Shown here piece after piece: positions 6,063 to 26,052 of a stretch of 35,947 nt of DNA. Source of the stretch: Pirellulales bacterium (GTDB taxonomy: Bacteria; Planctomycetota; Planctomycetia; Pirellulales; JADZDJ01). Within the stretch, counting starts at the first letter, position 1. Every line of letters starts with the position of its first letter. The position numbers and the translations under genes were made by a program. The notes beneath the pieces are model-generated. The model was not told the DNA's origin. It searched no databases and was given only the letters and a program-made list of their open reading frames with translations. Where the stretch lies: contig DATJYL010000182.1 of the NCBI GenBank assembly GCA_035499655.1, positions 1 to 35,947 of the forward strand, in the 5' to 3' direction.

Positions 6063-6066
6063 AGTA

Positions 6067-7251: not shown

Positions 7252-7305
7252 GCCCAAGCCGACGCCTTTGGCGTCGATGATCGACCGCAAGCGGTCGGCT
7301 TGGGC
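7252..7305. repeat. Three-way-junction hairpin element between moxR and the DUF58 gene
   Basis: An outer stem (GCCCAAGCC at 7252-7260 with GGCTTGGGC at 7297-7305) encloses two small hairpins: GACGCC/GGCGTC (7261-7275) and CGACCG/CGGTCG (7282-7297, its last base shared with the outer arm). The element starts 15 bases after the moxR stop and ends 9 bases before the next ATG. It looks like a REP-type dispersed element. It could also affect mRNA stability or downstream translation. Confidence 0.7.
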
Positions 7306-7314
7306 GGTTCCCCC

Positions 7315-8223
7315 ATGGCCACCGTCGATAAAAAACGCTTTCTGCATCCGGAGGCCATCAAGCGCATTGCGCGGTTGGACCTGCGGGCACGGCATATTGT
7401 GGAAGGGTATTTATCGGGAATGCACCGCAGTCCGTACTTTGGGCAATCGGTGGAGTTTTTGCAGCATCGCGAATACAGCTACGGCGACGATTTGCGGCAC
7501 GTCGATTGGAAGGTGTGGGCCAAGCAAGACCGGCTGTACATCAAGCAGTACGAAGAGGAAACCAATCTGCGGGCAATGTTGCTGGTCGATGTGTCGCACA
7601 GCATGCAATATGGCAACGGCCCGTTGAACAAGTACGAGTACGCGTGCACGGCTGCGGTGAGCCTGGCGTATTTGCTGCTGCGGCAGCAAGACGCCGTGGG
7701 TTGCCTCGCATTTGACGAGGGGGTTCGCGCCACGGTGGGCATGCGCACCAAGCGCAGTCATTTAAACTCCATCATTCAATCGCTGGGAGTAAGCGTGCCG
7801 CAAAAGAAGACCGACCTGCAACAAATTCTGCGTCAGGCGGCCGAAAGTTTCCCGCACCGAGGGTTGATGATCATTCTGTCCGATTTGCTGGCCCCGCGCG
7901 CCGGCTTCATCAAGGGACTAAAGCTGCTGCGGCAGCGCGGACACGATGTGTTAATGCTGCACATCATGGACGACGACGAATTGGATTTTCCGTTTGCCGG
8001 TCCGACGCGCTTCGAAGGCTTGGAACTGCCGGAGAATTTGACGTGCAATCCGCGAGCCTTGCGCGACGGTTATTTGCAGGCCTTGAACGCTTATCTGGAA
8101 GAAGTCCGCCGCGCGTGCGCCCAAAACGAATGCGATTACAAGTTGATCCGCACCAGCGATCCGCTGGATGCGGTGTTGGCGCAATTCATCAGCAATCGGA
8201 TGGGAACGCAACGCCGAGGTTAA
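7315..8223 (+). CDS. DUF58 domain-containing protein (VWA-like, MoxR partner)
   Basis: 302 residues from ATG 7315; a TTG further upstream lies inside the hairpin element and is rejected. The DUF58 hallmark, 'YGDDLRHVDW' followed by 'KQYEEE', is at about residues 56-80. A VWA-like strand with 'LLVDVSHSM' follows near 90-98, giving a DxSxS-type metal site, and 'MIILSDLLAP' forms the later strand. No transmembrane helix is evident, in contrast to many longer DUF58 proteins, so it is probably cytosolic or peripheral. DUF58 proteins are encoded next to moxR in many bacteria and are thought to be bound or remodelled by it. The gap to the next gene is only 12 bases, consistent with one transcript. 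Confidence 0.93.
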   Translation: MATVDKKRFLHPEAIKRIARLDLRARHIVEGYLSGMHRSPYFGQSVEFLQHREYSYGDDLRHVDWKVWAKQDRLYIKQYEEETNLRAMLLVDVSHSMQYGNGPLNKYEYACTAAVSLAYLLLRQQDAVGCLAFDEGVRATVGMRTKRSHLNSIIQSLGVSVPQKKTDLQQILRQAAESFPHRGLMIILSDLLAPRAGFIKGLKLLRQRGHDVLMLHIMDDDELDFPFAGPTRFEGLELPENLTCNPRALRDGYLQALNAYLEEVRRACAQNECDYKLIRTSDPLDAVLAQFISNRMGTQRRG

Positions 8224-8235
8224 ACGCACTGTTTT

Positions 8236-10464: not shown

Positions 10465-13205
10465 TGGGCCGCAAGAAAATTTTTACCGCCGCGTTGTTGG
10501 TCGCCGTAGTGTTCGTCGCCGCAGCCATTCATTTTGCCGCCGCGGGGGTGACGAACAATTCCACGGCAATTGTCGGCAATCAAACCGCGCCCGCCGATGG
10601 CGGCACTTCGGCAACCGGCGGTGGTGTTGCGGGCGGGGCGCTTACGCGGACTCGGTATGAATTCAGCCGGGTGCAATCGTTTACCGAATGGTGGCAGATG
10701 CCGCTGTTGGTGTTGGCGTGCGCGCTGGTGCTGCTGTTTGTGGCGTACATGTACCGGCGCGACAGCGTGGAATTGAAGCCCGGCATGGGAGTGCTATTGG
10801 CGATGCTGCGTTTGGCGGCTTTTGCGGGCGTGCTGCTGATGTATTTAGACGTGCAGAAGCGCAGCGAAACCAAGGTGGTGCATAATTCGCGGGTGGTGCT
10901 GCTGGTCGACACCAGCTTGAGCATGAGCCGCGCCGATGCCGACGAGACTGCGGCGGGCAATTCCGCGGGGGTGACTGCGGGCATTTCTTCCGGCGGCGTT
11001 TCCAACACAGCCAGCGGAGTGCGCCGGATCGATCAAGTGGCCGGGGCGCTAGCCGACGGGAAATTTTTGGACGCCTTGCGACACAAACACGACGTGGAAG
11101 TTGTGAAGTTCGATTCCGAGCTTCGCCGCACGGCCATGCTGCCCAAGCTTCCGGCAGCTCAACCCTCTCCCTCGGGGAGAGGGCAGGGTGAGGGTGCAGC
11201 AGCAAATTCGGACACCCTCGCCCCAACCCTCTCCCAAGGGGAGAGGGAAACCGCGCAAACCAAAAACGAAAACATCGACTGGCATAAAGAGCTTGATCCG
11301 CAAGGGGGCGAAACGCGCATCGGCCAGGCCGTGCGGCAAATCATCAACGACGAGCGGGGCGTGCCGCTTTCGGCCGTGGTTTTATTTTCCGACGGCGGCC
11401 AAAACGCGGGAGTCGACGTGGGGGCGGCGGTCAAAGCGGCACAGGAAGCGAAAGTGCCTGTCGATGTTATCGGTTTGGGCTCCGCCAAGCGGCCCACGAA
11501 TGTGCGCGTCAGCGATTTAGTGGCTCCAGCCCGGGCCTACCCCGGCGATAGTTTTCAAGTGACGGGCTATGTGCAATCGCAGGGATTGGCCGGCCGGACC
11601 GTGACGGTGGAGCTGTCGGTCTTGGCCGCCGGGCAAGGACAGGGAGGCAAAACGGAAGCGCAACCGGCGCTGGAAAAAACGCAGCGCGTGACTTTGGGCA
11701 GCGATGCCGAATCGACGCCGGTGCGGTTCGACATACCAGGTTTCGATACGGCGGGGCGCCGCGTGGTGCGCTTTCGCATTAAGCCGCTGCCTGATGTGAA
11801 AGACACTACGGACAACCAGCGGGAAGTGGATGTGGACATTGTCGATCGCAAAAATCGCGTGCTGCTGTTTGCCGGCGGTCCGACGCGGGAATATCAATTC
11901 GTGCGCAACATGCTGCGCCGCAGCGAACTGGCCAAAAGCGGCGACATGACGGTCGATGTGCTGCTGCAGTCGGCCACCGACGGCGTTTCGCAGGATGCCA
12001 ATCAAATTTTGCCCACATTCCCCCACACGATGCCCGAGCTGGCCCAGTACGACACCATCGTGGCCTTCGATCCCGACTGGCGGGAATTAGATCCGCAGCA
12101 AGTGGAGTTACTAGAAAAATGGGTGGGAGAAGAATCGGGCGGGCTGATTGCGATTGCCGGCCCGGTGTATACCGACGCCTGGGTGCAAGAGCCGGCGATG
12201 GCGACGATTCGCAAGCTGTACCCGGTGGAATTCAACCGCCGCTTGGCGCTATTGGAAGATGCCCGTTACGGCTCGCAGCAGCCGTGGCCGTTGGATTTTA
12301 CCCGCGAAGGCTTGGAAGCGGAATTTTTGTGGCTGGACGACAGCGCCCAAACCAGCCGCGAAGTGTGGGATTCGTTCCCCGGCGTGTACGGTTATTACCG
12401 GGTGCGAGGCGCCAAGCCGGGCGCCACCACGTATGCGTTGTACTCCGATCCGGAAGCGGCGTCGGGGGAACAAAAGCCGGTGTACTTCGCAGGGCAGTTT
12501 TACGGATCGGGCCGGGTGTTTTACATGGGCAGCGGCGAAATGTGGAGGCTGCGGGAACTGGACGAAAAGTATTTCGATGCGTTGTACGTCAAGCTGATTC
12601 GGCATGTCTCGCAGGGACGGTTGTTGCGCGGTTCGCCGCTGGGGAACTTGCTGGTGGAGCGCGAACGGTATGTGGTCGGCAACACGGTGGTGGTGCGGGC
12701 ACAGTTGACGAACCCCCAGCATCAACCGCTGGATGTGCCCAAAGTTACGTTGCAAGTGACGCAGAACGACGGTGTGCCGATGAACGTGGCGCTATTGCCC
12801 GATCCGTCTCGCAAGGGAATGTACCTGGGTCAGTTCACGGCGACACAGGAAGGCGAATGCCGGTTGGATTTGCTGCATCCCGATTCGCCCGACCAGCCGC
12901 TGACCCGTCGGCTGCAGGTGTTTATGCCCAAGCTGGAGCAGGAAAAGCCGGAACGAAACGATGCAGTATTAAAGGAACTGGCCGACGGCACCGGAGGGCA
13001 ATTGTACATTGGCGTGCCCGCGGCGCTGGGTCCGGGAAGCGAAAAGCCCTTGGTGGGACAACTGCAAGATAAAACGCAAGAGACATACGTGGCGGGGCAG
13101 CGCGACCGAACCTGGGAAGAACATTGGATGCACTCGCTGCTGGGCATCATCGCCGGTTGCTTGTGCGTGGAGTGGCTGGTGCGGCGATTGTGCCGCTTGG
13201 CGTGA
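10464..13205 (+). CDS. Large VWA / glutamine-amidotransferase-like membrane protein
   Basis: 913 residues. Three hydrophobic helices lie at about 5-27, 79-97 and 108-130. A VWA domain follows with MIDAS 'DTSLS' near residue 149, the Thr motif 'GGETRIG' near 281, and 'LFSDGG' near 307. A GATase-like region starts near 465 ('RVLLFAGGPTREY') and includes 'LEKWVGEESGGLIAIAG'. A last helix lies near 892-908. This is the usual second VWA partner in planctomycete MoxR operons. The region of residues 233-262 is encoded by a nested inverted-repeat element inserted in frame (see 11161-11249). It sits in a loop between a core strand and the Thr motif, so the metal site is probably preserved. Confidence 0.85.
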   Translation: MGRKKIFTAALLVAVVFVAAAIHFAAAGVTNNSTAIVGNQTAPADGGTSATGGGVAGGALTRTRYEFSRVQSFTEWWQMPLLVLACALVLLFVAYMYRRDSVELKPGMGVLLAMLRLAAFAGVLLMYLDVQKRSETKVVHNSRVVLLVDTSLSMSRADADETAAGNSAGVTAGISSGGVSNTASGVRRIDQVAGALADGKFLDALRHKHDVEVVKFDSELRRTAMLPKLPAAQPSPSGRGQGEGAAANSDTLAPTLSQGERETAQTKNENIDWHKELDPQGGETRIGQAVRQIINDERGVPLSAVVLFSDGGQNAGVDVGAAVKAAQEAKVPVDVIGLGSAKRPTNVRVSDLVAPARAYPGDSFQVTGYVQSQGLAGRTVTVELSVLAAGQGQGGKTEAQPALEKTQRVTLGSDAESTPVRFDIPGFDTAGRRVVRFRIKPLPDVKDTTDNQREVDVDIVDRKNRVLLFAGGPTREYQFVRNMLRRSELAKSGDMTVDVLLQSATDGVSQDANQILPTFPHTMPELAQYDTIVAFDPDWRELDPQQVELLEKWVGEESGGLIAIAGPVYTDAWVQEPAMATIRKLYPVEFNRRLALLEDARYGSQQPWPLDFTREGLEAEFLWLDDSAQTSREVWDSFPGVYGYYRVRGAKPGATTYALYSDPEAASGEQKPVYFAGQFYGSGRVFYMGSGEMWRLRELDEKYFDALYVKLIRHVSQGRLLRGSPLGNLLVERERYVVGNTVVVRAQLTNPQHQPLDVPKVTLQVTQNDGVPMNVALLPDPSRKGMYLGQFTATQEGECRLDLLHPDSPDQPLTRRLQVFMPKLEQEKPERNDAVLKELADGTGGQLYIGVPAALGPGSEKPLVGQLQDKTQETYVAGQRDRTWEEHWMHSLLGIIAGCLCVEWLVRRLCRLA
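11161..11249. repeat. Nested inverted-repeat element inserted in frame in a VWA gene
   Basis: Two hairpins share the identical 9-bp stem CCCTCTCCC/GGGAGAGGG, at 11163-11183 and 11227-11247, each with a 3-base loop. The inner flanks AGGGTGAGGGTG (11185-11196 region) and CACCCTCGCCCC (11213-11224) are also near-complementary (10 of 12), so the whole unit is one large dyad. Its translation contains 'PSPSGRGQGEG' and 'TLSQGERE', peptide words well known as translations of this class of dispersed element in many genomes. The frame stays open throughout. Confidence 0.85.
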
Positions 13206-13210
13206 GGGGC

Positions 13211-13275
13211 AGTGGTCCGTAGTCAGTTGTCCGTTGCCAGTTGTTATTCGATGCAACGGACCACGGACAAGACAA
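13211..13275. repeat. GTCCGT-type inverted repeat in the gap after the second VWA gene
   Basis: TTGTCCGTTG at 13227-13236 is complementary to CAACGGAC at 13254-13261 and nearly continues into CACGGACAA. Several copies of GGTCCGT/GTCCGT occur in both orientations. It fills the 86-base gap between two operon genes and resembles a dispersed repeat, not a terminator, because no U-tract follows. Confidence 0.55.
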
Positions 13276-13291
13276 TTCGCAATTAATTTCA

Positions 13292-15943
13292 ATGTCTGTC
13301 GAACTTGAAAAACATGAGCTGGCTCCGTCGATTGCAGGGCTGCTGGATCGGTTGCGGCTGCGCATTCGCAGTTATGTGTGGACCGATGGATTGGCGGCGG
13401 CGGTAATTGTGTTGGGATTGGCTTTTTGGATTTCGCTGGCCTTTGATTGGCTGTTTGAGCCGCCGTGGCAATTTCGGGCTTTGATGCTGGCGGCGGCGAT
13501 AGCGGCACTGGCATACGTTGTGAACCGGCTAATTGTGCGCCGGGCTTTCCGTCCATTGGACAATGCCGATTTGGCCGTCGTGCTGGAGCGCCGTTTCCGC
13601 GAATACCACGACAGCTTGCTCACCACTGTGGAGCTATCCGAGCAATCAGCGCATGCGGCGGGGTTCAACGCGGAAATGCTGCATCACACGCGGCAGGAGG
13701 CGGCCCAACGATCAGAGGCGGTTCGGCTGGGCGATGTGTTTCGCTTCACGCCGCTGCTGCGCACTTTAACGACCGCGGCAGTGTTGGCAATCTCGGTTTT
13801 GGCGTTCGCCGTTGCGGCGCAAGAAGCGTTTGCCACGTGGGTCCAACGTGTCGTATTGCTTGACAAAAACTTGCTGTGGCCGCGGGCCAACCACGTGCGC
13901 GTGCAAGATTTTCCGGCCGATCATGTTCGCAAAGTGGCCAAGGGGTCCGATTTTGAAATCACGGCCGCGGCCGATCTGACCGGGCGATTCACCTTGCCGG
14001 AAACCGTCCAGGTGCGCTACCACACCGACGAAGACATAAACGGTCGAGACAACATGAGCACCGTGGGAACGCCGGGAGCGAATGATCGAGAACAAAAGTA
14101 TTCGTATGTTTTCAAAGGGGTGATGTCATCGATTGGGTTTGACGTGTTCGGCGGCGACGACCGGGATCGGGGTTACCGGATTGAAGTGGTCGAGAATCCG
14201 ACGATCAGCCACATGGAACTGGCCTGCGAATATCCGCAGTACACGGGCCGGCCGGCGAACACCGTGCCGGCCAGCGCTGTGGTGCAATTGCCGCAGGGAA
14301 CGAAAATCACGATTCGCTGCGAAGCGAACAAAGACCTGGTGGATGTGCCGGTGACGATGGTGCAGGCAGATAAAGCCTCGGCGCTGGCGGACGTGGAGCT
14401 GCCGCCGGACGGCGACCGCCGGCATTTCTCGATCGCGCTGCCGGAATTGATGGAAGATACTACGCTGTTGTTCGAGTTGCACGATACGGACGGAATTCGC
14501 AGCCGGGACCCGGTGCGGCTGGTGTTGGCTGCCCGGGCCGACGACGTTCCCGCGGTAGCCTTGCAATTGAAGGGCATCAGCAACGCCATTACGCCGCAGG
14601 CGCGACTGCCCGTGGTCGGGAACGTCAAAGACGACTACGGCCTGACACGGCTGTGGTTTGAATATCAACTGGAAAAGGCGAATCCCAAGGGCAAGCCGGG
14701 GGCGGGTTCACAGGCGGAAGGCAGTGGTTCGTCGAATTCTCTGCGCGGCAGTGGGGCGGCGGACAATTCGTCATCAACGGGAACCGCGACCACTGCGCAG
14801 CCGGCGGCCGAGCAAACCTTGCGCACTTCGACCATGGGGCACGATGGTCGGCCGCGCAGTGATATCAGCATCGAATTGGCCGACGGCGAAGCGCTCGATC
14901 TGCAACGCTTGGGTGAAATCCACGAACTGCTTCAGCGACGCGGCATCAAAACCGTGGACGATTTGGCGCGCATCACTTCGCCCGATGAACAAACGTTGGT
15001 CGCGGAACTAAAAACGCAGCAGCAAATCGATCAGGCGTTGGCGTTTGCGCCGCGGGAAGGCGATCGTTTGGAGGTAACGCTTAAAGCGGCCGATAACTGC
15101 GCGCTGCCGGCTGGCGCAAACGTGGGGCAAGGGGAACGATACCAATTGGATATTGTGCCGCCGGAGCAGTTGCTCTCGATGTTGGAAGGACGGGAGTTGA
15201 TGCTCCGCCGCCAATTCGAAATCATCTATCAGGAATTGACCGATACGCGGGACGGCTTGGCCCGGCTGGATTTTGGCGGCCCTGATGCTAAAAAAACGGC
15301 GACTGATCAGGCCGGACGTGAGCCGGGAGACTCGCCGGGAAGTGAGCCCGGCGACAAAGCAGCGGAAAAATCGGTTGGGCCTGCCGGCGACAGCAGCGAG
15401 TCGAATGGCGAATCGGCTCCCGCGAACGAAACGCCTGAACAACGGGCCGAGCGGCTGGCGAAGCGGGCCATGGAACTGCGCGAATTACGGGTGGCCCGGG
15501 CGCTGGATAACGGAGATCGTTCAGCCCACGAAACGCTGACGGTGGCCGACGCTTTCGACGACATTCGCGAGGAAATGGAGAACAACCGGGTCGATACGCC
15601 GGAATTGCAAAGCCGGCTGAAAGACCAAATTGCCGATCCGCTGCGGCACATCAGCACGCAAATGTTCCCGGAACTGCGGGCCCGGCTGGTTCAGCTTCGC
15701 CGAGTGCTGGATGACCCTACAACCGGCCCCACGCAGTTGAAAGCGGCCCTGGCCCAATGCGATGCAATTTTGGCGGAAATGAAAGCGGTCTTGGATAAAA
15801 TGTTAGAATTAGAGACGTTTAACCAGGTAGTGGACATGCTGCGCGACATTATCACCGACCAGGAAAAGCTAAGCCACGAAACCCAGCAGCGCCAGAAAGA
15901 GGAGCTAAAGAACAAATTAAGGGAGTTGCAAAACCCAAATTGA
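13292..15943 (+). CDS. DUF4175-like large membrane protein with C-terminal coiled coils
   Basis: 883 residues from ATG 13292; a TTG upstream lies in repeat DNA. Two hydrophobic helices at about 34-55 and 63-82 and a third at about 158-177 anchor a long, presumably extracytoplasmic part with beta-rich segments (about 200-460). Low-complexity Gly/Ser/Ala linkers lie near 467-508 and 667-715. Between them is a short helical piece around residues 539-573 with a helix-hairpin-helix feel ('GIKTVDDLARI'). The C-terminal 170 residues are strongly helical and charged, ending in a Glu/Lys/Gln-rich coiled coil. The topology recalls the DUF4175 family; this is a judgement from layout, not a firm family match. 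It probably forms a complex with the two coiled-coil proteins encoded next. Confidence 0.7.
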   Translation: MSVELEKHELAPSIAGLLDRLRLRIRSYVWTDGLAAAVIVLGLAFWISLAFDWLFEPPWQFRALMLAAAIAALAYVVNRLIVRRAFRPLDNADLAVVLERRFREYHDSLLTTVELSEQSAHAAGFNAEMLHHTRQEAAQRSEAVRLGDVFRFTPLLRTLTTAAVLAISVLAFAVAAQEAFATWVQRVVLLDKNLLWPRANHVRVQDFPADHVRKVAKGSDFEITAAADLTGRFTLPETVQVRYHTDEDINGRDNMSTVGTPGANDREQKYSYVFKGVMSSIGFDVFGGDDRDRGYRIEVVENPTISHMELACEYPQYTGRPANTVPASAVVQLPQGTKITIRCEANKDLVDVPVTMVQADKASALADVELPPDGDRRHFSIALPELMEDTTLLFELHDTDGIRSRDPVRLVLAARADDVPAVALQLKGISNAITPQARLPVVGNVKDDYGLTRLWFEYQLEKANPKGKPGAGSQAEGSGSSNSLRGSGAADNSSSTGTATTAQPAAEQTLRTSTMGHDGRPRSDISIELADGEALDLQRLGEIHELLQRRGIKTVDDLARITSPDEQTLVAELKTQQQIDQALAFAPREGDRLEVTLKAADNCALPAGANVGQGERYQLDIVPPEQLLSMLEGRELMLRRQFEIIYQELTDTRDGLARLDFGGPDAKKTATDQAGREPGDSPGSEPGDKAAEKSVGPAGDSSESNGESAPANETPEQRAERLAKRAMELRELRVARALDNGDRSAHETLTVADAFDDIREEMENNRVDTPELQSRLKDQIADPLRHISTQMFPELRARLVQLRRVLDDPTTGPTQLKAALAQCDAILAEMKAVLDKMLELETFNQVVDMLRDIITDQEKLSHETQQRQKEELKNKLRELQNPN

Positions 15944-15996
15944 CCTTGAATTACGGCCCGACAGAAAATAGCCGGCGGAAGGGATTAGGGTAGGCT

Positions 15997-16018
15997 TATA
16001 ATGCCCAAAAAATGGGCA
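15997..16018 (+). promoter_or_regulatory. Possible -10 box (TATAAT) overlapping an operator-like inverted repeat
   Basis: TATAAT at 15997-16002 is a perfect -10 hexamer, but no good -35 lies 16-18 bases upstream. The last T begins TGCCCA-AAAAA-TGGGCA (16002-16018), a perfect 6-bp inverted repeat around five A residues. This sits in the 181-base gap before the coiled-coil gene, about 120 bases upstream of its chosen start, and could be an internal promoter with an operator or 5' hairpin. Confidence 0.3.
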
Positions 16019-16124
16019 GGAGAGGAACTTTTCCAGGGCCGGCGACACTAAAATGAAGGAAATGGGTTATAACATAAGTCGGCACGGCGATTGCGGTTGG
16101 GCACACGAAAGGAACGTCCACCCT

Positions 16125-18392
16125 ATGGCATGTTTTCAAAATCGCGTTCTGTTGGCGATGATCCTGGGACTGGCCCTGCTGGCCCCTGGAAGTGCCGGGG
16201 CTCAGACTTCAGGCGCGGCAGCCGGCGGCGGGAATGAGAAATCGTCGAGCGAAAAGCCGACGGGCGATAAAGCGGCGGGTGACAAGCCGTCGGCTGACAA
16301 ACCCGCAGCTGACAAACCCGGGGACGATCATCCGCCAGCCGACCCAACGCCAGCGAAAGGTCCGGACGGAGCAGCGGCGCCAGCGGCGAATGTTTCTTTA
16401 CCGTCGGAACAAGCCAAGCTGGCCGGCAAGTACAAGGAGCTGGAGCGGGTCATTCTGCGGATGGCGGAAGTGATGCAGGCCAGCGATCCGAAGCGGGCCG
16501 CCCTGCTAAGGCAAGCGTTTGCCCAAAGCAAAGAGAAACAAATCGATTCGCAATATGAAGACCTGGTGAAGCTGCTCCAGCAGGAGCAACTGTATCAGGC
16601 TTCCAAAGGCCAGGCGGCCATGCAGCAAGACCTGGATCAATTGCTGCAGTTGTTGCTCAGCGGCGAACGCGACAAGCAAATTCCCAACGAGCGGGCCGAG
16701 ATTAAACGCTTTATCGAACGGATCAACAAGCTGATCCGCGAAGAGCAGGGCATTCAAGGCGAAACCGAAGGGCAAGGGGATGCCGACGATTTGATCAAGC
16801 AGCAAGAGAACGTCGCCAACAAGACGGGCGAACTGACGCAGGACCTGAATAAATTCAATGCCTTGAATCATCCGGCCGGCGGAGCGAGTGACAAACCAGG
16901 CGACCAAGGGAACGAAAAATCGGACGAGAAAAATGCCGACGGCAAAAACCCCGATGGGAAAAATGCTGACGGCAAGAATTCGGACGAGAAAAACGGAGAC
17001 GACAAGAACTCGGACAGCAAGAAATCGGGCGAGGAGAAATCGAACGAGAAGGCCGGCAGCCCTTTAGGCCAGGGGGAGAAACAGGATGGGGCCACTGAAG
17101 GTGAGAAGTCAGGAGACAAATCAGCCGACGCATCTGGACAAAAAGGCGTGCCGGCGGGACAGAAGAGCGACGGCAAATCGGGAGAGCAAAAGGCCGACGC
17201 GCAGAAATCAGGCGCGCAGAAGTCCGGCGATCAAAAATCGGAAAATCAACAGCCGGGCGACCAGCAGAGCCAACAGAAGCCGGGGGGCCAAAAATCCGGG
17301 AATCAAAAGTCCGGCGATCAGAAATCCAACGCTCAAAAATCGGACCAGCAGCCGCCGCAAAAATCGGACGGAGAGAAATCGGATCAGCAGAAATCGGACC
17401 AGCAGAAGTCAGACCAACCGTCCGGCGGCCAATCGGACCAACCGTCGCATGACAAATCGCAACAGGGAGGTCAAGGCAAGCAAAGCAAAGCGCAAAACGG
17501 TCAACCCAACGACAACGATAACGACGCGGACAAGCAAAACAACTCGGATCAACAACAATCGGATAACGACGATACGCCGGCCCGCAAGCGCGTCCAACAG
17601 GCGGAAAACCGCATGCGCGCAGCCAAGCGCCAATTGGAACAAGCCCAGCGTCGCGGGGCGGCTGACCAGCAGCAGCGGGCCGTGGAGGAATTGAAGCAGG
17701 CCAAGGCCGAGCTGGAAGAAATTTTGCGGCAGTTGCGCGAGGAGGAAATCGAACGGGTGTTGGCGCAGCTGGAAGGCCGGTTCCGCAAAATGTTGGAGAT
17801 GCAGATTGAGGTTTATGAAGGGACTATCGCCCTGGATCGCACGGCGGAAGAAGACCGCGACCGTGACACGGAAATGGAAGCCGGCAAGCTGGGACGCAAG
17901 GAAGCGGACATCACCGGCGAGGCCGATAAGGCGCTGGCCTTGTTGCACGAGGAAGGTTCTTCAGTGGCCTTTCCCGAAACGGTCGAGCAAATGCGCGAAG
18001 ACATGGATCAGGTGAAAACGCGGCTGGATCGGGCGAACATCGGCCAAATTACCCAGGGCATTGAGCAAGACATTGTCAAATCGCTGGAGGAAATGGTGGC
18101 GGCGCTGCAAAAGGCGCAGAAAGATCAGCAGCAGCGACAAGGCGGCGCAGGGGGCGGTGGCGGCGGTGGCCAGCAAGATCAGCCGCTGGTGGACGCCATC
18201 GCCGAATTGAAAATGATCCGCGCTTTGCAAATGCGTGTAAACACCCGCACCGAGCGCTATTCCAAATTGTTGCAAGACGGCGCCGAGCAGGCCGAAGCTC
18301 CCGATTTGCTGGAGGCGGTCAAGCGGCTTAGCGAACGAGAACAGCGAATTTACCAAACCACGCGGGACATTGTGGTGGGAAAGAACAAATGA
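16125..18392 (+). CDS. Exported Lys/Asp/Ser/Gln-rich low-complexity coiled-coil protein
   Basis: 755 residues from ATG 16125, chosen because it starts a clean signal peptide (basic start, 'LLAMILGLALLAPGSAGA', cleavage before QTSG) and has AAAGGA 11 bases upstream; an ATG at 16053 would bury the signal peptide. After a helical part (about 90-255) comes a long disordered stretch, about 258-480, built of 'KSGDQKS', 'KNADGKN' and 'QQKSDQ' units. The C-terminal 270 residues are strongly helical coiled coil, with a Gly run near 675-685. No enzymatic motif is visible. Its position after the DUF4175-like protein suggests a periplasmic partner or tether. The stop overlaps the next ATG by four bases. 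Confidence 0.85.
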   Translation: MACFQNRVLLAMILGLALLAPGSAGAQTSGAAAGGGNEKSSSEKPTGDKAAGDKPSADKPAADKPGDDHPPADPTPAKGPDGAAAPAANVSLPSEQAKLAGKYKELERVILRMAEVMQASDPKRAALLRQAFAQSKEKQIDSQYEDLVKLLQQEQLYQASKGQAAMQQDLDQLLQLLLSGERDKQIPNERAEIKRFIERINKLIREEQGIQGETEGQGDADDLIKQQENVANKTGELTQDLNKFNALNHPAGGASDKPGDQGNEKSDEKNADGKNPDGKNADGKNSDEKNGDDKNSDSKKSGEEKSNEKAGSPLGQGEKQDGATEGEKSGDKSADASGQKGVPAGQKSDGKSGEQKADAQKSGAQKSGDQKSENQQPGDQQSQQKPGGQKSGNQKSGDQKSNAQKSDQQPPQKSDGEKSDQQKSDQQKSDQPSGGQSDQPSHDKSQQGGQGKQSKAQNGQPNDNDNDADKQNNSDQQQSDNDDTPARKRVQQAENRMRAAKRQLEQAQRRGAADQQQRAVEELKQAKAELEEILRQLREEEIERVLAQLEGRFRKMLEMQIEVYEGTIALDRTAEEDRDRDTEMEAGKLGRKEADITGEADKALALLHEEGSSVAFPETVEQMREDMDQVKTRLDRANIGQITQGIEQDIVKSLEEMVAALQKAQKDQQQRQGGAGGGGGGGQQDQPLVDAIAELKMIRALQMRVNTRTERYSKLLQDGAEQAEAPDLLEAVKRLSEREQRIYQTTRDIVVGKNK
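16897..17440 (+). repeat. Degenerate in-frame tandem repeats encoding the K/S/D/Q-rich linker
   Basis: The stretch is made of short degenerate units rich in AAATCGGA and AAAAATCC words. The clearest part is a 15-base tandem unit, AAATCGGAYCAGCAG, at 17376-17390 and 17391-17405, with a diverged third copy at 17406-17420. All units are multiples of three bases, so copy-number changes would lengthen or shorten the linker without breaking the frame. Confidence 0.7.
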
Positions 18393-19579
18393 CGCGAAAT
18401 GCAACTTGGAAAACATGGCGGCGAGGAGCGAAAGGCGAATGCCTGCCGGCAAGAAGGGTGTTGCTGGGATTGATTGTTCTTCTGGCGATTTTCGCGGCAA
18501 CCGCTCGGGCACAGGTGGCGCTGGATGAAGAATTTGGCCGTGAACCCACGTGGAAAATTCCCACGGCGGCGGAAGTGCGCGGCGAAGTGCTGGCTTGGAT
18601 GAACGAACAAAAAACCGACGAGGCGCTTCGCCAGCAAGCCGCCGCACTCTGGCCGGAAAAAGCAGCCGAGCCGGCCCAAACCAGCGGGACAACAAGTTCA
18701 ACACCGCTCCTGGGACGCGTCGTGACGACTTTTGCGCTGGTTAATCCGGACGCCAAACAATTGGCCGACGTGTGTTCCAAACCGCACGGCGAAGCAAAAA
18801 CGCCGGAATTCGCCTGGCTGTCGGACGAAAAAACGCCGGCGTTCTTCCGCAACAATATGCGGTTGTGGTTAGGCCAATGGCTGACTCAGGAGCGGCTGTA
18901 CGACGAGGGCCTGGAACAACTGAAGGGCTTGCAACCGGCGGACGTGGTCGATCCGGCCGCGCTGTTGTTTTACCAGAGCGTGTGCCATCACTGGATGCTG
19001 CACAAAGACGAAGGGTTGAAAACCATCGCCCAATTGCTGGAGCAGCGGAAGGCCATTCCGCGGCGCTATGAGGAAGTGGCCGAGTTGATGCAGACAGATT
19101 TATCGGGCTTGGAGGATGAATCGCTGGATCACATTTCGCGGCGAATGAACGACGTGACGCGGCGGCTGGATTTCGGCCGGGCCGGCAAGAAGGTGCGCGG
19201 CGAGGAGGACGGCATTGTCGCGTCGCTGGATAAATTGATCAAGCAACTGGAAGATATGGCCAATGGCATGGGGGGCGGCGGCGGGCAGGGAGAAGGTCAA
19301 GGTCAAGAGCAACCCGGCGAACCCGGCGGCCAGGGAAATCCCCAAGGCATTCGTTCGCGCAATCCGGCGGCCGACAGCCGCTTGGCGCGTGGCCGAGGAG
19401 CAGGCGAAGTGAAAAGCAAAGACATTGGCAACCAGAGCGGTTGGGGGGACCTGCCGCCCAAAGATCGTGAAGAAGCCATGCAGCAAATCAGCAAAGATTT
19501 TCCCTCGCACTACCGCGACGTGATCGAGCAATACTTCCGAAGGCTGGCCGCGGAAGATGAGGACAAGCAGCAGAAGTAA
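18389..19579 (+). CDS. Exported planctomycete-type conserved coiled-coil protein
   Basis: 396 residues. The ATG overlaps the previous stop (ATGA), supporting this start. A basic N-terminus is followed by the hydrophobic stretch 'VLLGLIVLLAIFAATARA' and cleavage before QVAL. The body is helical. A Gly/Gln/Pro-rich linker lies near 293-318. The C-terminus contains 'WGDLPPKDREEAMQQ' and 'FPSHYRDVIEQYFRRLA', a conserved tail that I associate with planctomycete proteins encoded beside MoxR/VWA operons. No catalytic motif is visible. The gap to the next gene is eight bases. It is probably a periplasmic component working with the preceding coiled-coil protein. Confidence 0.8.
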   Translation: MTRNATWKTWRRGAKGECLPARRVLLGLIVLLAIFAATARAQVALDEEFGREPTWKIPTAAEVRGEVLAWMNEQKTDEALRQQAAALWPEKAAEPAQTSGTTSSTPLLGRVVTTFALVNPDAKQLADVCSKPHGEAKTPEFAWLSDEKTPAFFRNNMRLWLGQWLTQERLYDEGLEQLKGLQPADVVDPAALLFYQSVCHHWMLHKDEGLKTIAQLLEQRKAIPRRYEEVAELMQTDLSGLEDESLDHISRRMNDVTRRLDFGRAGKKVRGEEDGIVASLDKLIKQLEDMANGMGGGGGQGEGQGQEQPGEPGGQGNPQGIRSRNPAADSRLARGRGAGEVKSKDIGNQSGWGDLPPKDREEAMQQISKDFPSHYRDVIEQYFRRLAAEDEDKQQK

Positions 19580-19587: not shown

Positions 19588-20850
19588 ATGAGAAGCACGG
19601 CTCGGTTCGGTTTTCAAAAGGATTTTGCATTCATGTTTGGTTCGCTGATTTTAATGGCCGCAGTCGCCGTGGGTTCGCCCGAGGTGCAGGTGAACACCGT
19701 CGATGGCGGCGTTACAAAGGGAGAATTGCAGCAACTTTCCACGGATGGCATCGAACTCAAGACCGAAAATGGCGATGCAAAGCTGCCGCTCAGCCAAGTT
19801 TTGAACGTCGTGCCGCAGTCCATGGTTCCCCCGGCTGTTGAAAAACCGGCGGCCTGGATTGAATTGATCGATGGTTCCAAGCTGGCGACGAGCGAGTTCA
19901 CCGTTGAAGACGGTTCGGCTAACTTGATTTTTGATGCTGACAAAACCGCAAAGATATCCACGACTGCAATCCACAGCGTCCGGTTTTCACGGCCCGATGA
20001 TCCTGCTTCCGCTGTCTGGCCGAAAAATGTCGGCGCCGATGCAACCGGCGATTTGTTAGTTGTACGCAAAAAGGATCAAATAGATTTCATGGAAGGCAGC
20101 GTGGGGGAAGTCGATGAAAATTACGTGATTTTGAAAGTCGATGGTGAAACCTATCCCGTCAGCCGCGCAAAAGTTGACGGCTTAGTTTACTTTCACAAAA
20201 TGGCCGACAAACTTCCTGATCCGGTATGTGTTGTTGAGAATGCGTCTGGCTGGCGCTTGTACGCGAAAGAATTGTCGTTCGTCCCGCCAAACAATACATA
20301 TCCTGCTGGGCGCTTCGAAGTCACCACGCTCTCTGGTGATAAATTTTTCTTTCTCTCTGGCGATCAAGTCACCAAGCTCGATTTTTCCGCCGGCAAAGTT
20401 GCTTTCCTCAGCGATTTGGAACCGGAAAGCACGCAGTGGACGCCGTATCTGGATTTCGGCAACGCGGTCCCGGCCATGGCGCAATATTATGCCCCGCTAC
20501 GTGACGAAGGGCGCGAGCATCAACCGATCCGCTTGGGCGGGAAGACGTATAACAAAGGTCTGGCTCTGTATAGCCGCACCGCTTTGGAGTACCGTGTGCC
20601 CGCAGGCATGAAACAATTCAAAGCCACCGCCGGCATTGACGATGCCGTGCGAGAAGCGGGCCATGTGCGACTCTCGATTTCGGCCGATGGGAAATCGCTG
20701 TTCGATCGGGCGCTTACCGGAAAGGACGCGCCGGTGGATGTGGATTTGAACGTGGCTGGCGCCAAGCGGCTTTCCATTTTGGTCGATTACGGCGACCAAT
20801 TCGACGCGGGCGATTTTCTCGACCTCGCAGAGGCAAGGATGTTGAAATGA
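19588..20850 (+). CDS. Exported NPCBM-domain protein
   Basis: 420 residues from ATG 19588; ATG 19633 is a plausible alternative that gives a shorter signal peptide. The hydrophobic stretch 'FGSLILMAAVAVGS' marks export. Residues about 30-250 are beta-rich, with repeated 'xxDG...L' strands similar to SH3-like or LamG-like small barrels. The last 130 residues ('GGKTYNKGLALYSRTALEY' ... 'KRLSILVDYGDQFDAGDFLDLAEARM') match the NPCBM fold, a putative carbohydrate-binding module found at ends of glycosidases and widespread in planctomycetes. No glycosidase domain is present, so a binding role at the cell surface is the best guess. Its end overlaps the first HtrA gene by four bases (ATGA). Confidence 0.85.
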   Translation: MRSTARFGFQKDFAFMFGSLILMAAVAVGSPEVQVNTVDGGVTKGELQQLSTDGIELKTENGDAKLPLSQVLNVVPQSMVPPAVEKPAAWIELIDGSKLATSEFTVEDGSANLIFDADKTAKISTTAIHSVRFSRPDDPASAVWPKNVGADATGDLLVVRKKDQIDFMEGSVGEVDENYVILKVDGETYPVSRAKVDGLVYFHKMADKLPDPVCVVENASGWRLYAKELSFVPPNNTYPAGRFEVTTLSGDKFFFLSGDQVTKLDFSAGKVAFLSDLEPESTQWTPYLDFGNAVPAMAQYYAPLRDEGREHQPIRLGGKTYNKGLALYSRTALEYRVPAGMKQFKATAGIDDAVREAGHVRLSISADGKSLFDRALTGKDAPVDVDLNVAGAKRLSILVDYGDQFDAGDFLDLAEARMLK

Positions 20851-22802
20851 AATACCGCTTTCCAATTTGCCCGATTGTGGCGCTGTTGATGGCGGCGGGC
20901 GCCACCCGGACCACGATCGCAGAAGAAGCGGCGCTGAAAATCGATCCCGCCGTCGCTCAGGCCGAGCAAGCCCGCATTGCCGCAGTGGCCAAAGCGATGC
21001 CATCGGTGTTGGCTATCTTCGTGCCCGGAGGGCAGGGGGGCGGTTCGGGGGTCGTCATCTCGCCCGACGGTTACGCCTTGACCAATTTTCACGTGGCCCG
21101 GCCGTGCGGCACGTTCATGAAGTGCGGCATGGCTGACGGCAAGCTGTACGATGCGGTGATCGTGGGGCTCGATCCGGTGGGGGACGTGGGCTTGATAAAA
21201 CTGTACGGCCGCGATGATTTTCCCGCCGCCGAATTGACCGACAGCGACGAAGTGCAACCGGGCGATTGGTGCTTCACTATGGGCAACCCGTTTTTGCTGG
21301 CCACCGATTTTCGTCCCAGCGTGGCTTATGGCGTGGTGTCGGGGGTGCATCGCTACCAATATCCTTCGGGCACGCTGTTGGAATACACCGACTGTTTGCA
21401 GGTCGATGCGGCCATTAATCCGGGCAATTCGGGCGGACCGTTGTTCGACGCCCAGGGACGATTGATCGGCATCAATGGCCGCGGTTCGTTCGAGAAGCGC
21501 GGGCGAGTGAATGTCGGGGTGGGCTACGCCATTTCGATCAACCAAATCAAAAACTTTTTGGGCGATTTGAAATCGGGCCGGATTGTCGATCATGCCACGC
21601 TGGGCGCAAGGGTGGCCACTTCGGACGATGGCCGCGTGCTGGTGAGCGATATTCTGGAACACAGCGACGCTTACCGACACGGCTTGCGCTACGACGACGA
21701 AATTGTGTCGTTTGCCGGGCGGCCTGTTCACAGCGTGAACGGTCTGAAAAACGACCTCGGCATTTTTCCCAAAGGATGGCGGGTGGCAATCACCTACCGC
21801 CGCGATGGAAAAAATACGGACACGTTTGTGCGCTTGATGGGCGTGCACACCGAAGCGGAGTTGCTGGCAAAGATTGATGCGGAGCGCGAACTGGAACCGC
21901 CCAGACCTAATGGGCGGCAACCGCGCGACGGCCGTCGACCCGGGAACGAGCCACAACCCGGGCAGCCGCCCAAGCCGGGCGACCAACCTCAGCCTGGAGA
22001 GCAACCGAAGCCGGGCGAAGAGCCAAAACCAGGCGAACCGCCCAAGCTGCCCGCCAACCCCAGCGAGTTGGAACAGGCCGTTCACGCGCCCGTGCCGGAA
22101 GAATTGAAAAAGCAATACGAAGAACGGACTGGTTACGCGAATTTCTATTTCAATCGCGAAAACACACAGCGCGTTTGGAAAGCGCTAGTTGCCAAAGGAG
22201 ATTTTGCCCAAGCGGCCGGCACGTGGACCCTACGCGGTCAACAAATTGCCGCGGCTCCCATGTTCGGTCCGCCGGCCATTGTGCAGAACATGTCGCCCGG
22301 CCCGGTGACAATTCATCTGAGCGAGACGGACTGCGACATGGATTTACCGACGAGTCCGGCGCCGTCGAAAATCACCGTGACCGATGGAATCGACGCCGGC
22401 GCGAATCCGGCCATTTTGAATCCGCCCGGCAGCGGCGGCTTGCTGGCCGCGCTTCAACTGTGGCGCAAGCTGTTGGTCGGCGGCCCCGGGAAATACGGCC
22501 AAGTGACGTACGAAGGCTTAGCACCAGTGCCCGGTCACAACGGCCTGTGCGACGTACTGCTGGCCGTGGGCGAAGGGGTCGATACGCGATTTTATTGCGA
22601 CCCCGCCGACGGCACGCTGCTATGCCTGGAAATGTATCCGGACGACGAGACCGATCCGTGCGAGGTATACTTCGGCGAATATCGGGAAGAACAAGGCCAT
22701 TGGTTGCCGCACCGCATGGAGGTGCGTTGCGGCGATGCTGTGTTTGGCGTGTTCGCGCTGACGGGGTTCGATTTGCAAAAAGCTGCGGAGAAAACACCGT
22801 GA
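20847..22802 (+). CDS. HtrA/DegP-like S1C serine protease with PDZ and extra C-terminal domain
   Basis: 651 residues with a signal peptide ('IVALLMAAGATRTTIA'). The trypsin-like S1C domain has an intact triad: His82 in 'TNFHVARP', Asp113 in 'GDVGLIKL' and Ser195 in 'NPGNSGGPLF', all in the expected spacing. One PDZ domain follows at about 240-330. A Pro/Gly/Gln/Glu-rich linker of 'KPGEQP' units lies near 352-405. A further ~230-residue domain of mixed helix and strand follows and is not part of normal HtrA. Its 'LLCLEMYPDDETDPCEVYF' and 'LPHRMEVRCGDAVFG' strands suggest a LolA-like half-barrel, which is only an inference. It is probably a periplasmic protease, first of three consecutive paralogues. 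The stop overlaps the next ATG by one base. Confidence 0.9.
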   Translation: MKYRFPICPIVALLMAAGATRTTIAEEAALKIDPAVAQAEQARIAAVAKAMPSVLAIFVPGGQGGGSGVVISPDGYALTNFHVARPCGTFMKCGMADGKLYDAVIVGLDPVGDVGLIKLYGRDDFPAAELTDSDEVQPGDWCFTMGNPFLLATDFRPSVAYGVVSGVHRYQYPSGTLLEYTDCLQVDAAINPGNSGGPLFDAQGRLIGINGRGSFEKRGRVNVGVGYAISINQIKNFLGDLKSGRIVDHATLGARVATSDDGRVLVSDILEHSDAYRHGLRYDDEIVSFAGRPVHSVNGLKNDLGIFPKGWRVAITYRRDGKNTDTFVRLMGVHTEAELLAKIDAERELEPPRPNGRQPRDGRRPGNEPQPGQPPKPGDQPQPGEQPKPGEEPKPGEPPKLPANPSELEQAVHAPVPEELKKQYEERTGYANFYFNRENTQRVWKALVAKGDFAQAAGTWTLRGQQIAAAPMFGPPAIVQNMSPGPVTIHLSETDCDMDLPTSPAPSKITVTDGIDAGANPAILNPPGSGGLLAALQLWRKLLVGGPGKYGQVTYEGLAPVPGHNGLCDVLLAVGEGVDTRFYCDPADGTLLCLEMYPDDETDPCEVYFGEYREEQGHWLPHRMEVRCGDAVFGVFALTGFDLQKAAEKTP

Positions 22803-23884
22803 TGGGCCCACAGCAACAACCATCGTCTATTCCCGGAATTCATCGTCCGCGGCGTCACCCACTCGCTTGCGGTTTAGCAACGACCTGCTTGATCGCCCTG
22901 ACGGCTTTCGCGCCGCTGGGCGCTTCCACTGCTTGGGCCGCCAAAACGACCGACACCGTTCGGGAAGTGCAACGCAAAACGGTCAAAATTTACGGAGCCG
23001 GCGGTTTGCGCGGGTTGGAGGCGTATCAATCGGGCTTTTTAATTTCGGCCGACGGGTACGTGCTGACAGTTTTCAGCCACGTGCTCGATTCCGACACCAT
23101 TACCGTCACGCTGGACGACGGGCGAAAACTAGACGGAAAACTGGTGGGGGCCGACCCGCGTTTGGAAATCGCGGTGCTCAAAATCGACGCCGCAGATTTG
23201 CCGCATTTCGATTTGCAGCAGGCAAAAGCCGGCGTGGAAGGCACACGGGTGCTGGCGTACAGCAATTTGTTCGGCGTGGCCACGGGGGACGAACCGGTGA
23301 GCGTGCTGCACGGCTCGATTGCCGCGGTAACGACGCTGGCGGCCCGGCGGGGGGCGTATGAAATTGCGTATCAAGGGCCCGTGTATGTGTTGGACGCCAT
23401 GACCAATAATCCGGGCGCGGCCGGTGGCGCGCTCACGAATTTGAATGGTCAATTATTGGGGCTGTTGGGAAAGCAATTGCGGAATTCGCGGAATAACATT
23501 TGGCTCAACTACGCCTTGCCGGCCAGCGAATTAGCGCCAGCCGTGGAAGCCATTAAGGCGGGGAAAAGTCAGGCCCAGACAACCCCTGCCACGCCCGCCC
23601 ATCCGGAACAGACATTGACGGCGGCCGATCTGGGGCTGGTGTTGGTTCCGAATGTGTTGGAGCGCACGCCGCCGTTTGTAGACACGGTGCGGGAGAATTC
23701 GCCGGCGGCCAAGGCCGGCATTCGTCCGGATGATTTAGTGGTTTTCGTCGATAATCAATTGGTGCAATCGTGCAACGCACTGGCGACGGAATTAGCAAAG
23801 CTTGACCGCGACGCCGAAGTGCACTTAGTATTGCTGCGCTCCGGCGAGTTGACGGATGTTACGCTGAAGCCCGGCGGCGAATGA
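22802..23884 (+). CDS. Catalytically impaired HtrA-like protein with PDZ
   Basis: 360 residues from ATG 22802, which overlaps the previous stop (TGATG). An Arg/His-rich n-region and hydrophobic stretch end in A-W-A before AKTT. The S1C fold is recognisable, but only His93 ('FSHVLDS') is kept. The Asp position is Glu122 ('DPRLEIAVLKI'), and the nucleophile position is Ala207 ('NNPGAAGGAL' in place of NPGNSGG). A PDZ domain covers about 280-355 ('VRENSPAAKAGIRPDDLVVF'). The frame is long and intact, so this looks like a maintained pseudoprotease, not a decaying gene. It may act as a regulatory or peptide-binding partner of the upstream active HtrA. Confidence 0.88.
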   Translation: MGPQQQPSSIPGIHRPRRHPLACGLATTCLIALTAFAPLGASTAWAAKTTDTVREVQRKTVKIYGAGGLRGLEAYQSGFLISADGYVLTVFSHVLDSDTITVTLDDGRKLDGKLVGADPRLEIAVLKIDAADLPHFDLQQAKAGVEGTRVLAYSNLFGVATGDEPVSVLHGSIAAVTTLAARRGAYEIAYQGPVYVLDAMTNNPGAAGGALTNLNGQLLGLLGKQLRNSRNNIWLNYALPASELAPAVEAIKAGKSQAQTTPATPAHPEQTLTAADLGLVLVPNVLERTPPFVDTVRENSPAAKAGIRPDDLVVFVDNQLVQSCNALATELAKLDRDAEVHLVLLRSGELTDVTLKPGGE

Positions 23885-23928: not shown

Positions 23929-26052
23929 ATGAAGGTGTGCTGTCCAAACTTAAAGTTTGAAATCCGGTTTGGGGTGGCTTTAATCTGCGCCGCTTTGTGC
24001 GGCCTGATGTGCGCTGCGCCGCTGCGCGCGGCGGATGATTTAGCGCTGCGCGAAGAAGCGGCCATGAAAGCGGCCGTCGACCGCGTGGCCCCCAGCGTGG
24101 TGCGAATTGAAACGTTGGGCGGGCTGGAAACCATCGGCAATTTGCTGGTGGGCACGGGTCCCACGTCGGGGCTGATTGTTTCGTCGGACGGGTACATCAT
24201 TTCCAGCGCGTTCAATTTCGTCCAACAGCCGGCGCAAATGTTGGTCGATTTGCCCGATGGCACTCGATTGCCGGCGAAAGTGGTGGCGCACGATCACAGC
24301 CGCATGCTCGTGCTCTTGAAAGTTTCCACCGACGGATTGGATCCGAAGAAGCAACTTCCCGTGCCCCTGGCTGCTCCAACCAGCGAAATGTCCGTGGGGC
24401 AATGGGCCATTGCCGTCGGACGAACTTTCGACGGCGATCAGCCGAACATGTCGGTGGGCATTATCAGCGCGTTGAACCGCGTGTGGGGCCGGGCGATTCA
24501 AACCGACGCCAAAATTTCGCCGGCCAATTACGGTGGGCCACTGGTCGATTTGCAGGGCCGGGTGCTGGGCGTGTTGGTGCCCATGTCGCCTCAGGAAACC
24601 AGCGAAGTGGCCGGCGTCGAGTGGTACGATTCGGGCATTGGCTTCGCCGTTCCGTTGGAGCAAATCAACCGGGTGTTGGACCGGTTGAAAAAGGGTGAGG
24701 ATTTGAATCCCGGACTGTTGGGCGTAAGCCTGCGGCCGGGCGACCCTTACGCCGATCCGCCGATGATCGCGGCCAGCCATCCGAAATCGCCGGCGGCTGC
24801 GGCGGGGTTCAAAGCCGGCGACCGCATTGCCGAAATCAACGGCGTGAAAGTGAACAGTGCCTCCGAATTGCATCACCAGTTGGGGCCCCTTTACGCCGGA
24901 GAAAAAATCAATGTGGTGGCGCTGCGCGGCGAGGAGCGGATCGAGCGCTCCGCCGAATTGGTCGCCAAGCTCCCCTTGTACATTCATCCGTTTTTGGGAA
25001 TTTTGCCGCTGCGTGAAATTCAACCCGATGAGCACGCCCAAGAAAGCGGCGCCGCGGATAAGGACAAACCCGGCGTGGCAAAGGCTACAACGGATAAGAA
25101 AAAGGACGGCAAAGACAAAGACGACGAGCCAATCGCTGGGAAACACCAGGACGGCGTGGTGGTGCGGCAAGTTTATGCGGACAGTCCGGCGGCCAAGGTG
25201 GGCATTTTGCCGGGCGATCGAATCGAATCTGTCAACGGAGAAACGCTAACAGATCGCTTGCAGTTGCAGGAACTTTTGTCGGCGTTGGAACCGCTGCAGG
25301 CGGTGCAGGTCGAGATCGAACGAGAAGGTAAAAAACAAAAGTTGGACGCAAAATTGGCCACGCTGCCGGAGACGGTTCCCGACAAGTTGGCGCCGGCGCA
25401 TGACGCCAATCCGCCGGCGGACAAAAACCCGCCAGCCACGGGAAAAATCGAAATTAAGATTCCCGAGGCCCCCAGCGGCGCCTTGGCGTACGTGCCATCC
25501 ACTTACAATTCGCATGTGCCGCACGGCCTGGTGGTATGGCTGCATCCGGCCGGCGGTTACAAAGCCGACGAGCTGATTGCCAAGTGGAAGCCGCTGTGCG
25601 AAGCCAACGATTTGATTCTGCTGGCTCCCAACAGCGCCGAATCGGCCCGCTGGCAACGCACGGAATTGGAATTTATTCGCAAAGCCATCGATGACGTGGT
25701 GCAAAAGTACAACATCGACCCCGCGCGGATTGTGGTGATGGGCGAAGAAGCAGGCGGCGGAATGGCCTATTTGCTGGCCGGACAAAATCGAGATTTGATT
25801 CGCGGCGTGGCCGCCATCAACGCCGCCATGCCCCCCGGCATGAGACCGCCAGAGAACGACCCCGTCCAGCGGCTGGCGGTTTTTACCACCACCACGAATA
25901 AGCCCTCGCCCGCACTGGCCGCAGGCATCAAGCGACTGCGCGAAGCCAAGCACCCGGTGACGGAGCTCGATTTAGGCGAGATCGCCCGTCCGCTCACCGC
26001 CGAAGAATTGGCGGAACTGGTTCGTTGGATCGATACCCTGGATCGTTCATAA
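23929..26052 (+). CDS. Pseudo-HtrA with two PDZ domains fused to an inactive alpha/beta-hydrolase-like domain
   Basis: 707 residues from ATG 23929, chosen for AGGA six bases upstream and a compact signal peptide ('FGVALICAALCGLMCAAPLRA'). In-frame ATGs at 23881 (4-base overlap with the previous stop) and 23923 are alternatives. All three protease positions are changed: His to Asn96 ('AFNFVQQ'), Asp to Met126 ('SRMLVLLKV'), Ser to Tyr201 ('SPANYGGPL'). Two PDZ domains lie near 250-345 and 405-480. From about 505 an esterase/PHB-depolymerase-like fold follows ('HGLVVWLHPAGGY', 'NSAESARW', 'DPARIVVMGEEAGGGMAYL'). Its nucleophile elbow reads G-E-E-A-G, so the Ser of GxSxG is Glu607. Both enzyme folds therefore look inactive. 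A binding or scaffold role in the envelope is likely. Confidence 0.85.
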   Translation: MKVCCPNLKFEIRFGVALICAALCGLMCAAPLRAADDLALREEAAMKAAVDRVAPSVVRIETLGGLETIGNLLVGTGPTSGLIVSSDGYIISSAFNFVQQPAQMLVDLPDGTRLPAKVVAHDHSRMLVLLKVSTDGLDPKKQLPVPLAAPTSEMSVGQWAIAVGRTFDGDQPNMSVGIISALNRVWGRAIQTDAKISPANYGGPLVDLQGRVLGVLVPMSPQETSEVAGVEWYDSGIGFAVPLEQINRVLDRLKKGEDLNPGLLGVSLRPGDPYADPPMIAASHPKSPAAAAGFKAGDRIAEINGVKVNSASELHHQLGPLYAGEKINVVALRGEERIERSAELVAKLPLYIHPFLGILPLREIQPDEHAQESGAADKDKPGVAKATTDKKKDGKDKDDEPIAGKHQDGVVVRQVYADSPAAKVGILPGDRIESVNGETLTDRLQLQELLSALEPLQAVQVEIEREGKKQKLDAKLATLPETVPDKLAPAHDANPPADKNPPATGKIEIKIPEAPSGALAYVPSTYNSHVPHGLVVWLHPAGGYKADELIAKWKPLCEANDLILLAPNSAESARWQRTELEFIRKAIDDVVQKYNIDPARIVVMGEEAGGGMAYLLAGQNRDLIRGVAAINAAMPPGMRPPENDPVQRLAVFTTTTNKPSPALAAGIKRLREAKHPVTELDLGEIARPLTAEELAELVRWIDTLDRS

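What the first reader, a model, noticed from the sequence alone, without database searches (positions are those of the whole stretch)
23929..26052. A double pseudoenzyme: dead HtrA, two PDZ domains and a dead alpha/beta-hydrolase in one chain
The third paralogue lacks every protease residue. Its C-terminal esterase-like domain has G-E-E-A-G at the nucleophile elbow, where GxSxG is expected. Losing catalysis in two unrelated folds of the same protein suggests selection for binding, for example as an envelope scaffold, rather than chance decay.
Basis: partly seen in the sequence, partly recalled or inferred. Interest (0 to 1): 0.75.

Follow-up and report, generated by a model that had tools for sequence, protein, structure and literature searches.

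The report
Dead protease partner with dead esterase
This planctomycete gene encodes an exported protein made of a protease-like part that has been inactive since before the planctomycete classes split and an esterase-like part that is inactive in this species' order; it sits beside a working protease and a second dead copy in an operon kept across the phylum, which suggests it serves as a regulatory or binding subunit rather than an enzyme.

Summary
The 707-aa protein has a signal peptide, an HtrA-type protease domain, two PDZ domains and a C-terminal alpha/beta-hydrolase; neither catalytic site is intact. The protease serine is a Tyr, nearly invariant (151 of 152 full-length homologues; 16 of 16 short homologues outside the class). 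His, Asp and oxyanion Gly are also replaced. The esterase elbow reads GEEAG, and acid and His are gone.

It is the third gene of a cassette (live HtrA > dead HtrA > this protein) ending a MoxR/DUF58/VWA operon conserved across the phylum. The two dead HtrAs are sister clades. Both folds of this protein are under strong purifying selection. Live and first dead HtrA are fused in some lineages, and one complete genome of the order lacks all three. Best reading: a non-catalytic partner of the live HtrA in the envelope, as MamO is for MamE.

Gemmataceae and Planctomycetales members often keep acid or His, and two of about 150 carry Ser-Asp-His. "Double pseudoenzyme" holds for this protein and its order, not for every orthologue.

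The parts
23929..26052 (+). P1: exported pseudo-HtrA / two PDZ / dead alpha-beta-hydrolase protein, 707 aa
23929..24033 (+). likely Sec-type signal peptide of P1 (about residues 1-35)
   Evidence: read directly from the sequence: charged start, hydrophobic stretch, AAPLRA-ADD; no predictor was run
24067..24693 (+). inactive HtrA protease domain (residues 47-255)
   Evidence: Trypsin_2 5.9e-21; triad columns; fold
24523..24540 (+). A-N-Y-G-G-P motif (residues 199-204); Y201 replaces the catalytic Ser; Tyr in 151 of 152 full-length homologues
24700..24963 (+). PDZ domain 1 (residues 258-345)
   Evidence: model
25144..25362 (+). PDZ domain 2 (residues 406-478), after a low-confidence linker
25441..26049 (+). 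inactive alpha/beta-hydrolase domain (residues 505-707)
   Evidence: NF050058/TIGR01840, model pLDDT 96.1, Foldseek 3wyd/8jh8/3doh
25741..25755 (+). nucleophile elbow G-E-E-A-G (residues 605-609), Glu607 at the nucleophile position
22802..23884 (+). P3: second dead HtrA (Ser>Ala, Asp>Glu) with one PDZ; sister clade of P1
20847..22802 (+). P2: live HtrA with intact His-Asp-Ser, one PDZ and a C-terminal domain without a Pfam family
19588..20850 (+). NPCBM-domain protein, conserved operon member
6016..19579 (+). upstream part of the conserved operon: MoxR ATPase, DUF58, BatA-like, VWA-like, two large proteins (900 and 779 aa), 396-aa protein (first four named by reading the sequence; order conserved)

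Best explanation
P1 is a non-catalytic, exported subunit that works with the adjacent live HtrA (P2) and the second dead HtrA (P3). Shown by sequence: both catalytic sites of P1 are destroyed; P2 keeps its triad; the three genes stay together in nearly all loci, and P2-P3 are fused in some lineages. Inferred: P1 and P3 form mixed HtrA assemblies with P2 (or dock on it) through their protease-fold surfaces and PDZ domains, and switch on, restrain or target P2 proteolysis in the envelope; Tyr201 fills the former active site. Inferred: the C-terminal hydrolase domain was captured as a further module and, in the window's order, binds a ligand or partner without catalysis. The MoxR/VWA genes of the operon suggest that the machine assists folding or assembly of envelope complexes (least certain step).
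For: Tyr at the Ser site in 151 of 152 full-length homologues and 16 of 16 short homologues outside the class. Intact triad in P2, none in P3. P2-P3-P1 order in 119 of 129 loci with enough upstream sequence; exceptions include P2-P3 fusions (L119, L120/L146, L207; also L116) and genomes with the genes scattered but kept (G202, G184). G019 (one contig, 99% complete) lacks recognisable P1, P3 and P2 C-terminal domain. P1 and P3 are sister clades at 96/89, each at 100. Operon conserved from MoxR to P1 across the phylum. Omega about 0.05 in both dead domains. Precedent: MamO, a dead HtrA without Gly193, is needed for MamE-dependent proteolysis (PMC4794232).
Against: No physical interaction or activity was measured. 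Fusions join P2 to P3, not P1. Sisterhood of P1 and P3 could be helped by long-branch attraction between dead copies. Shared operon does not prove a shared complex. In the MamO case the protease domain alone did not activate MamE, so the analogy does not fix which part of P1 would act. Some near-complete genomes of the order lack P1, so it is dispensable there.
Confidence: 0.6

Rival explanations
1. P1 acts on its own as a scaffold or chaperone: the HtrA fold and PDZ domains hold unfolded proteins or C-terminal peptides of envelope proteins and the hydrolase domain anchors it, without regulating P2.
For: PDZ domains kept; serine mutants of DegP keep chaperone activity (established knowledge); conservation of both dead folds.
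Against: Does not explain the fixed gene order next to a live HtrA and another dead HtrA nor the joint absence of the genes in G019.
Confidence: 0.22
2. The hydrolase domain is still an enzyme: in some orthologues a Ser-Asp-His or Asp-Asp-His set works (Asp nucleophiles occur in haloalkane dehalogenases and epoxide hydrolases), and in the window's order another residue has taken over.
For: L192 and L184 carry S-D-H, and L193, L194, L199 and L200 carry D-D-H, at the aligned columns; Gemmataceae members keep acid and His with Gly at the nucleophile.
Against: In the window protein all three positions are lost, and no Ser or His and only one Cys (Cys557, 77%, in a helix) is conserved above 70% in the domain. 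In Pirellulales the nucleophile column drifts among E, Q, G, K and R.
Confidence: 0.08
3. Simple decay: the protein is on its way to a pseudogene.
For: Both active sites are lost; one orthologue (L028) appears frameshifted.
Against: Open full-length frames in about 150 homologues, omega about 0.05, invariant Asn-Tyr-Gly-Gly motif, confident fold in both domains.
Confidence: 0.02
4. On history only (compatible with the best explanation): the hydrolase domain lost its nucleophile before fusion, in a stand-alone dead family (X) from which it was captured.
For: The nearest stand-alone homologue in the genome also has a dead elbow (GYESGG), with no Ser in its orthologues across the order; active esterases fall on one side of the tree, P1 domain and X on the other (99/94). 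Parsimony needs 4 changes with secondary Ser.
Against: P1 domains of Gemmataceae and Planctomycetales often keep Asp and His, and two carry Ser-Asp-His, so the captured domain may have been alive.
Confidence: 0.35

Closest known systems
MamO/MamE of magnetotactic bacteria (PMC4794232)
   Same: A dead HtrA kept with a live HtrA in one gene region; degenerate triad and a non-Gly residue at position 193; extra C-terminal domain; repeated pairing of live and dead copies.
   Different: P1 is not a MamO by score (29.9 bits against cut-off 800); it has PDZ domains and a hydrolase domain instead of a TauE-like domain; two dead copies beside the live one; kept across a phylum and not tied to magnetosomes. 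Metal binding not tested.
HtrA/DegP family (S1C peptidases, TIGR02037)
   Same: Fold, domain order protease-PDZ-PDZ, export; Foldseek best hits DegP/DegQ.
   Different: No catalytic triad, no oxyanion Gly; below the family cut-off (192.4 against 416.2).
PHB depolymerase / feruloyl esterase type alpha/beta-hydrolases (NF050058, TIGR01840, LC-Est1C 3wyd, 8jh8)
   Same: Fold and elbow geometry; HMM and structure matches.
   Different: Nucleophile, acid and His lost in the window protein; short; below family cut-offs.
Dead hydrolase-fold binding proteins such as neuroligins and DPPX/DPP6 (from general knowledge)
   Same: Hydrolase fold kept for binding after loss of the serine; DPPX (1xfd) is among the Foldseek hits.
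   Different: Eukaryotic, other architecture, no HtrA part.

Membership tests
HtrA/DegP serine peptidases (S1C) | trypsin-like fold followed by PDZ domain(s) | tested here: met
HtrA/DegP serine peptidases (S1C) | His-Asp-Ser triad and GNSGG motif | tested here: not met
   F95/N96, M126, Y201; NYGG in 172 of 174 P1 sequences
HtrA/DegP serine peptidases (S1C) | score above curated cut-off of TIGR02037 | tested here: not met
   192.4 against 416.2 bits
HtrA/DegP serine peptidases (S1C) | trimer or higher oligomer | not testable with these tools
   no multimer prediction available
Type 1 PHB depolymerase / PHB-family esterase (NF050058, TIGR01840) | alpha/beta-hydrolase fold | tested here: met
Type 1 PHB depolymerase / PHB-family esterase (NF050058, TIGR01840) | GxSxG nucleophile with Asp and His | tested here: not met
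   GEEAG; acid and His replaced
Type 1 PHB depolymerase / PHB-family esterase (NF050058, TIGR01840) | score above curated cut-off | tested here: not met
   60.1 against 150; 34.2 against 107.85
MamO | degenerate triad and non-Gly at position 193 | tested here: met
MamO | family score and TauE-like C-terminal domain | tested here: not met
   29.9 against 800 bits; the C-terminus is a hydrolase domain
MamO | di-histidine metal site; activation of a partner protease | not tested
   needs experiments; metal site not examined

The most novel reading that the evidence does not exclude
Planctomycetes as a phylum use a hetero-oligomeric HtrA machine in which one subunit cuts and two ancient dead subunits regulate it or present substrate, encoded with a MoxR/VWA remodelling system; in class Planctomycetia the third subunit gained a hydrolase-fold module that turned into a binding domain.
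Probability: 0.35. Interest if true: 0.8.

Novelty: new variant of a known kind. Interest (0 to 1): 0.62.

Why it matters
HtrA proteases are mostly studied as homo-oligomers. A phylum-wide cassette of one live and two dead HtrAs, kept together in fixed order, would be a much broader and older case of the live/dead pairing known from magnetosomes, and would make testable how pseudoproteases control envelope proteolysis. The hydrolase module offers a graded natural series (Ser-Asp-His; Gly or Asp with acid and His kept; all lost) for studying how an enzyme domain turns into a non-enzyme.

Tried and rejected
TALE-repeat hits to the C-terminal domain were rejected: they are sums of many weak repeat matches and no single stretch is significant. 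A single pre-fusion death of the hydrolase, suggested by a first tree whose P1 rows were Pirellulales only, was weakened after adding Gemmataceae and Planctomycetales members. Pfam gave nothing firm for the P2 C-terminal domain (weak DUF4292). The papers held contain no description of this cassette that the searches could find; absence from that library is not proof of novelty. Phyla other than Planctomycetota were not searched for the dead HtrA.

Full report
Observation. The ORF at 23929-26052 encodes 707 aa with an evident signal peptide, a Trypsin_2 domain, two PDZ domains and a C-terminal alpha/beta-hydrolase domain. AlphaFold2 with 50 orthologues gives pLDDT 90.6 and pTM 0.85 for residues 39-707; the C-terminal domain alone gives 96.1 and 0.92. 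Foldseek matches DegP/DegQ for the long model and esterases for the C-terminal domain, e.g. 8jh8 (TM 0.79 by query length) and 3wyd (0.73/0.76).

Dead protease. In the aligned full-length homologues the serine position is Tyr in 151 of 152 and Val in the other. Gly193 is replaced by Ala, Asn, Val, Ser and others; the Asp position holds Met, Lys, Asn, Gln and others, never Asp; the His position has mostly Phe or Asn. Asn200, Gly202, Gly203 and Leu205 around it are as conserved as the Tyr. The same Asn-Tyr-Gly-Gly stands in all 16 loci examined from genomes outside the class, where the protein is short (one PDZ, no hydrolase domain).

Dead hydrolase. The elbow GEEAG aligns with GHSMG of LC-Est1C and GLSAG of a PHB depolymerase and lies between strand and helix as an elbow should. 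Fourteen intact planctomycete esterases define the Ser, Asp and His columns; in 20 Pirellulales P1 domains these hold E/Q/K/G/R, then Ser/Ala/Gly and others (Asp once), then mostly Arg. Over about 150 homologues the nucleophile column is G 36, Q 35, E 29-30, D 12, A 12, K 10, R 7, S 4, T 3. The acid column is Asp in 30 and the His column His in 16. Gemmataceae-type and Planctomycetales members often keep acid and His (e.g. GDKDPL and RGHQY in L223) while the Ser is Gly or Asp; L192 and L184 have Ser-Asp-His; L053 has GxSxG without acid or His. So the hydrolase decayed stepwise, and fully in the window protein and most of its order. The nearest stand-alone homologue in the genome, family X, also has a dead elbow, with no Ser in its orthologues across the order. 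Active esterases fall on one side of the tree, X and the P1 domain on the other (99/94). Whether the Ser was lost once before fusion and regained, or lost several times, is open.

Selection. Between the window and the same-genus genome omega is 0.048 (protease) and 0.045 (hydrolase); with two more distant genomes 0.17-0.18 and 0.23-0.24. dS is about 1 or above, so the values are approximate.

Context. Upstream lie P2 (20847-22802), an HtrA with intact triad and GNSGG, and P3 (22802-23884), a second dead HtrA. The order P2-P3-P1 holds in 119 of 129 loci with at least 4.5 kb upstream (some loci overlap the same genome, so the number counts loci). With MoxR, DUF58, BatA-like, VWA-like, three uncharacterised proteins and an NPCBM protein it forms one operon-like run inside and outside the class. 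Named carriers of P1 include Blastopirellula marina, Bythopirellula, Thalassoglobus, Gimesia and Gemmataceae. A contig of identical length ties the same-order genome G093 to B. marina, so the window's organism most likely belongs to the Pirellulales. P1, P2 and P3 are each monophyletic at 100, and P1 and P3 are sisters at 96/89. This fits one inactivation followed by duplication before the classes split; long-branch attraction is a caveat.

Functional linkage. P2 and P3 lie in one open frame in L116, L119, L120/L146 and L207. G202 and G184 have the genes scattered but keep all three. G019, one contig and 99% complete, lacks recognisable P1, P3 and P2 C-terminal domain; G082 and G095 lack P1 and the P2 C-terminal domain (P3 was not searched there).

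Mechanism. The most likely role is a non-catalytic partner of P2. The closest precedent is MamO, a dead HtrA needed for MamE-dependent proteolysis, and the independent live/dead pairs in other magnetotactic groups (PMC4794232). Mixed oligomers, Tyr201 as a plug, and ligand binding by the hydrolase domain are inferences.

Verdict. The inference of selection for a non-enzymatic role is supported for the window's order. The claim that two folds died together needs the history above. New variant of a known kind.

Noticed in passing
own genome contig C232, L232:758-1537: Stand-alone 259-aa alpha/beta-hydrolase whose nucleophile is Glu (GYESGG); orthologues across the order have Asp, Glu, Gln, Gly, Ala or Thr there, never Ser: another dead hydrolase family kept across the order.
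   Followed up: partly
L116:3443-7315, L119:5734-8715, L120:4180-7137, L207:1933-4782: Live HtrA (P2) and dead HtrA (P3) fused in a single open frame, in several families.
   Followed up: yes
window 22065-22799 (P2 C-terminal domain): Conserved 245-aa domain of the live HtrA without a Pfam family; weak DUF4292 matches in 6 of 27 members.
   Followed up: partly
window 6016-20850: MoxR, DUF58, BatA-like and VWA-like genes plus three large uncharacterised proteins and an NPCBM protein in conserved order across the phylum.
   Followed up: partly
genomes G202 and G184 (same class): Cassette genes dispersed around the chromosome but all retained.
   Followed up: partly
L084:1135-2316: P1 homologue of the same order without second PDZ and hydrolase domain (393 aa), possibly a secondary loss.
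   Followed up: no
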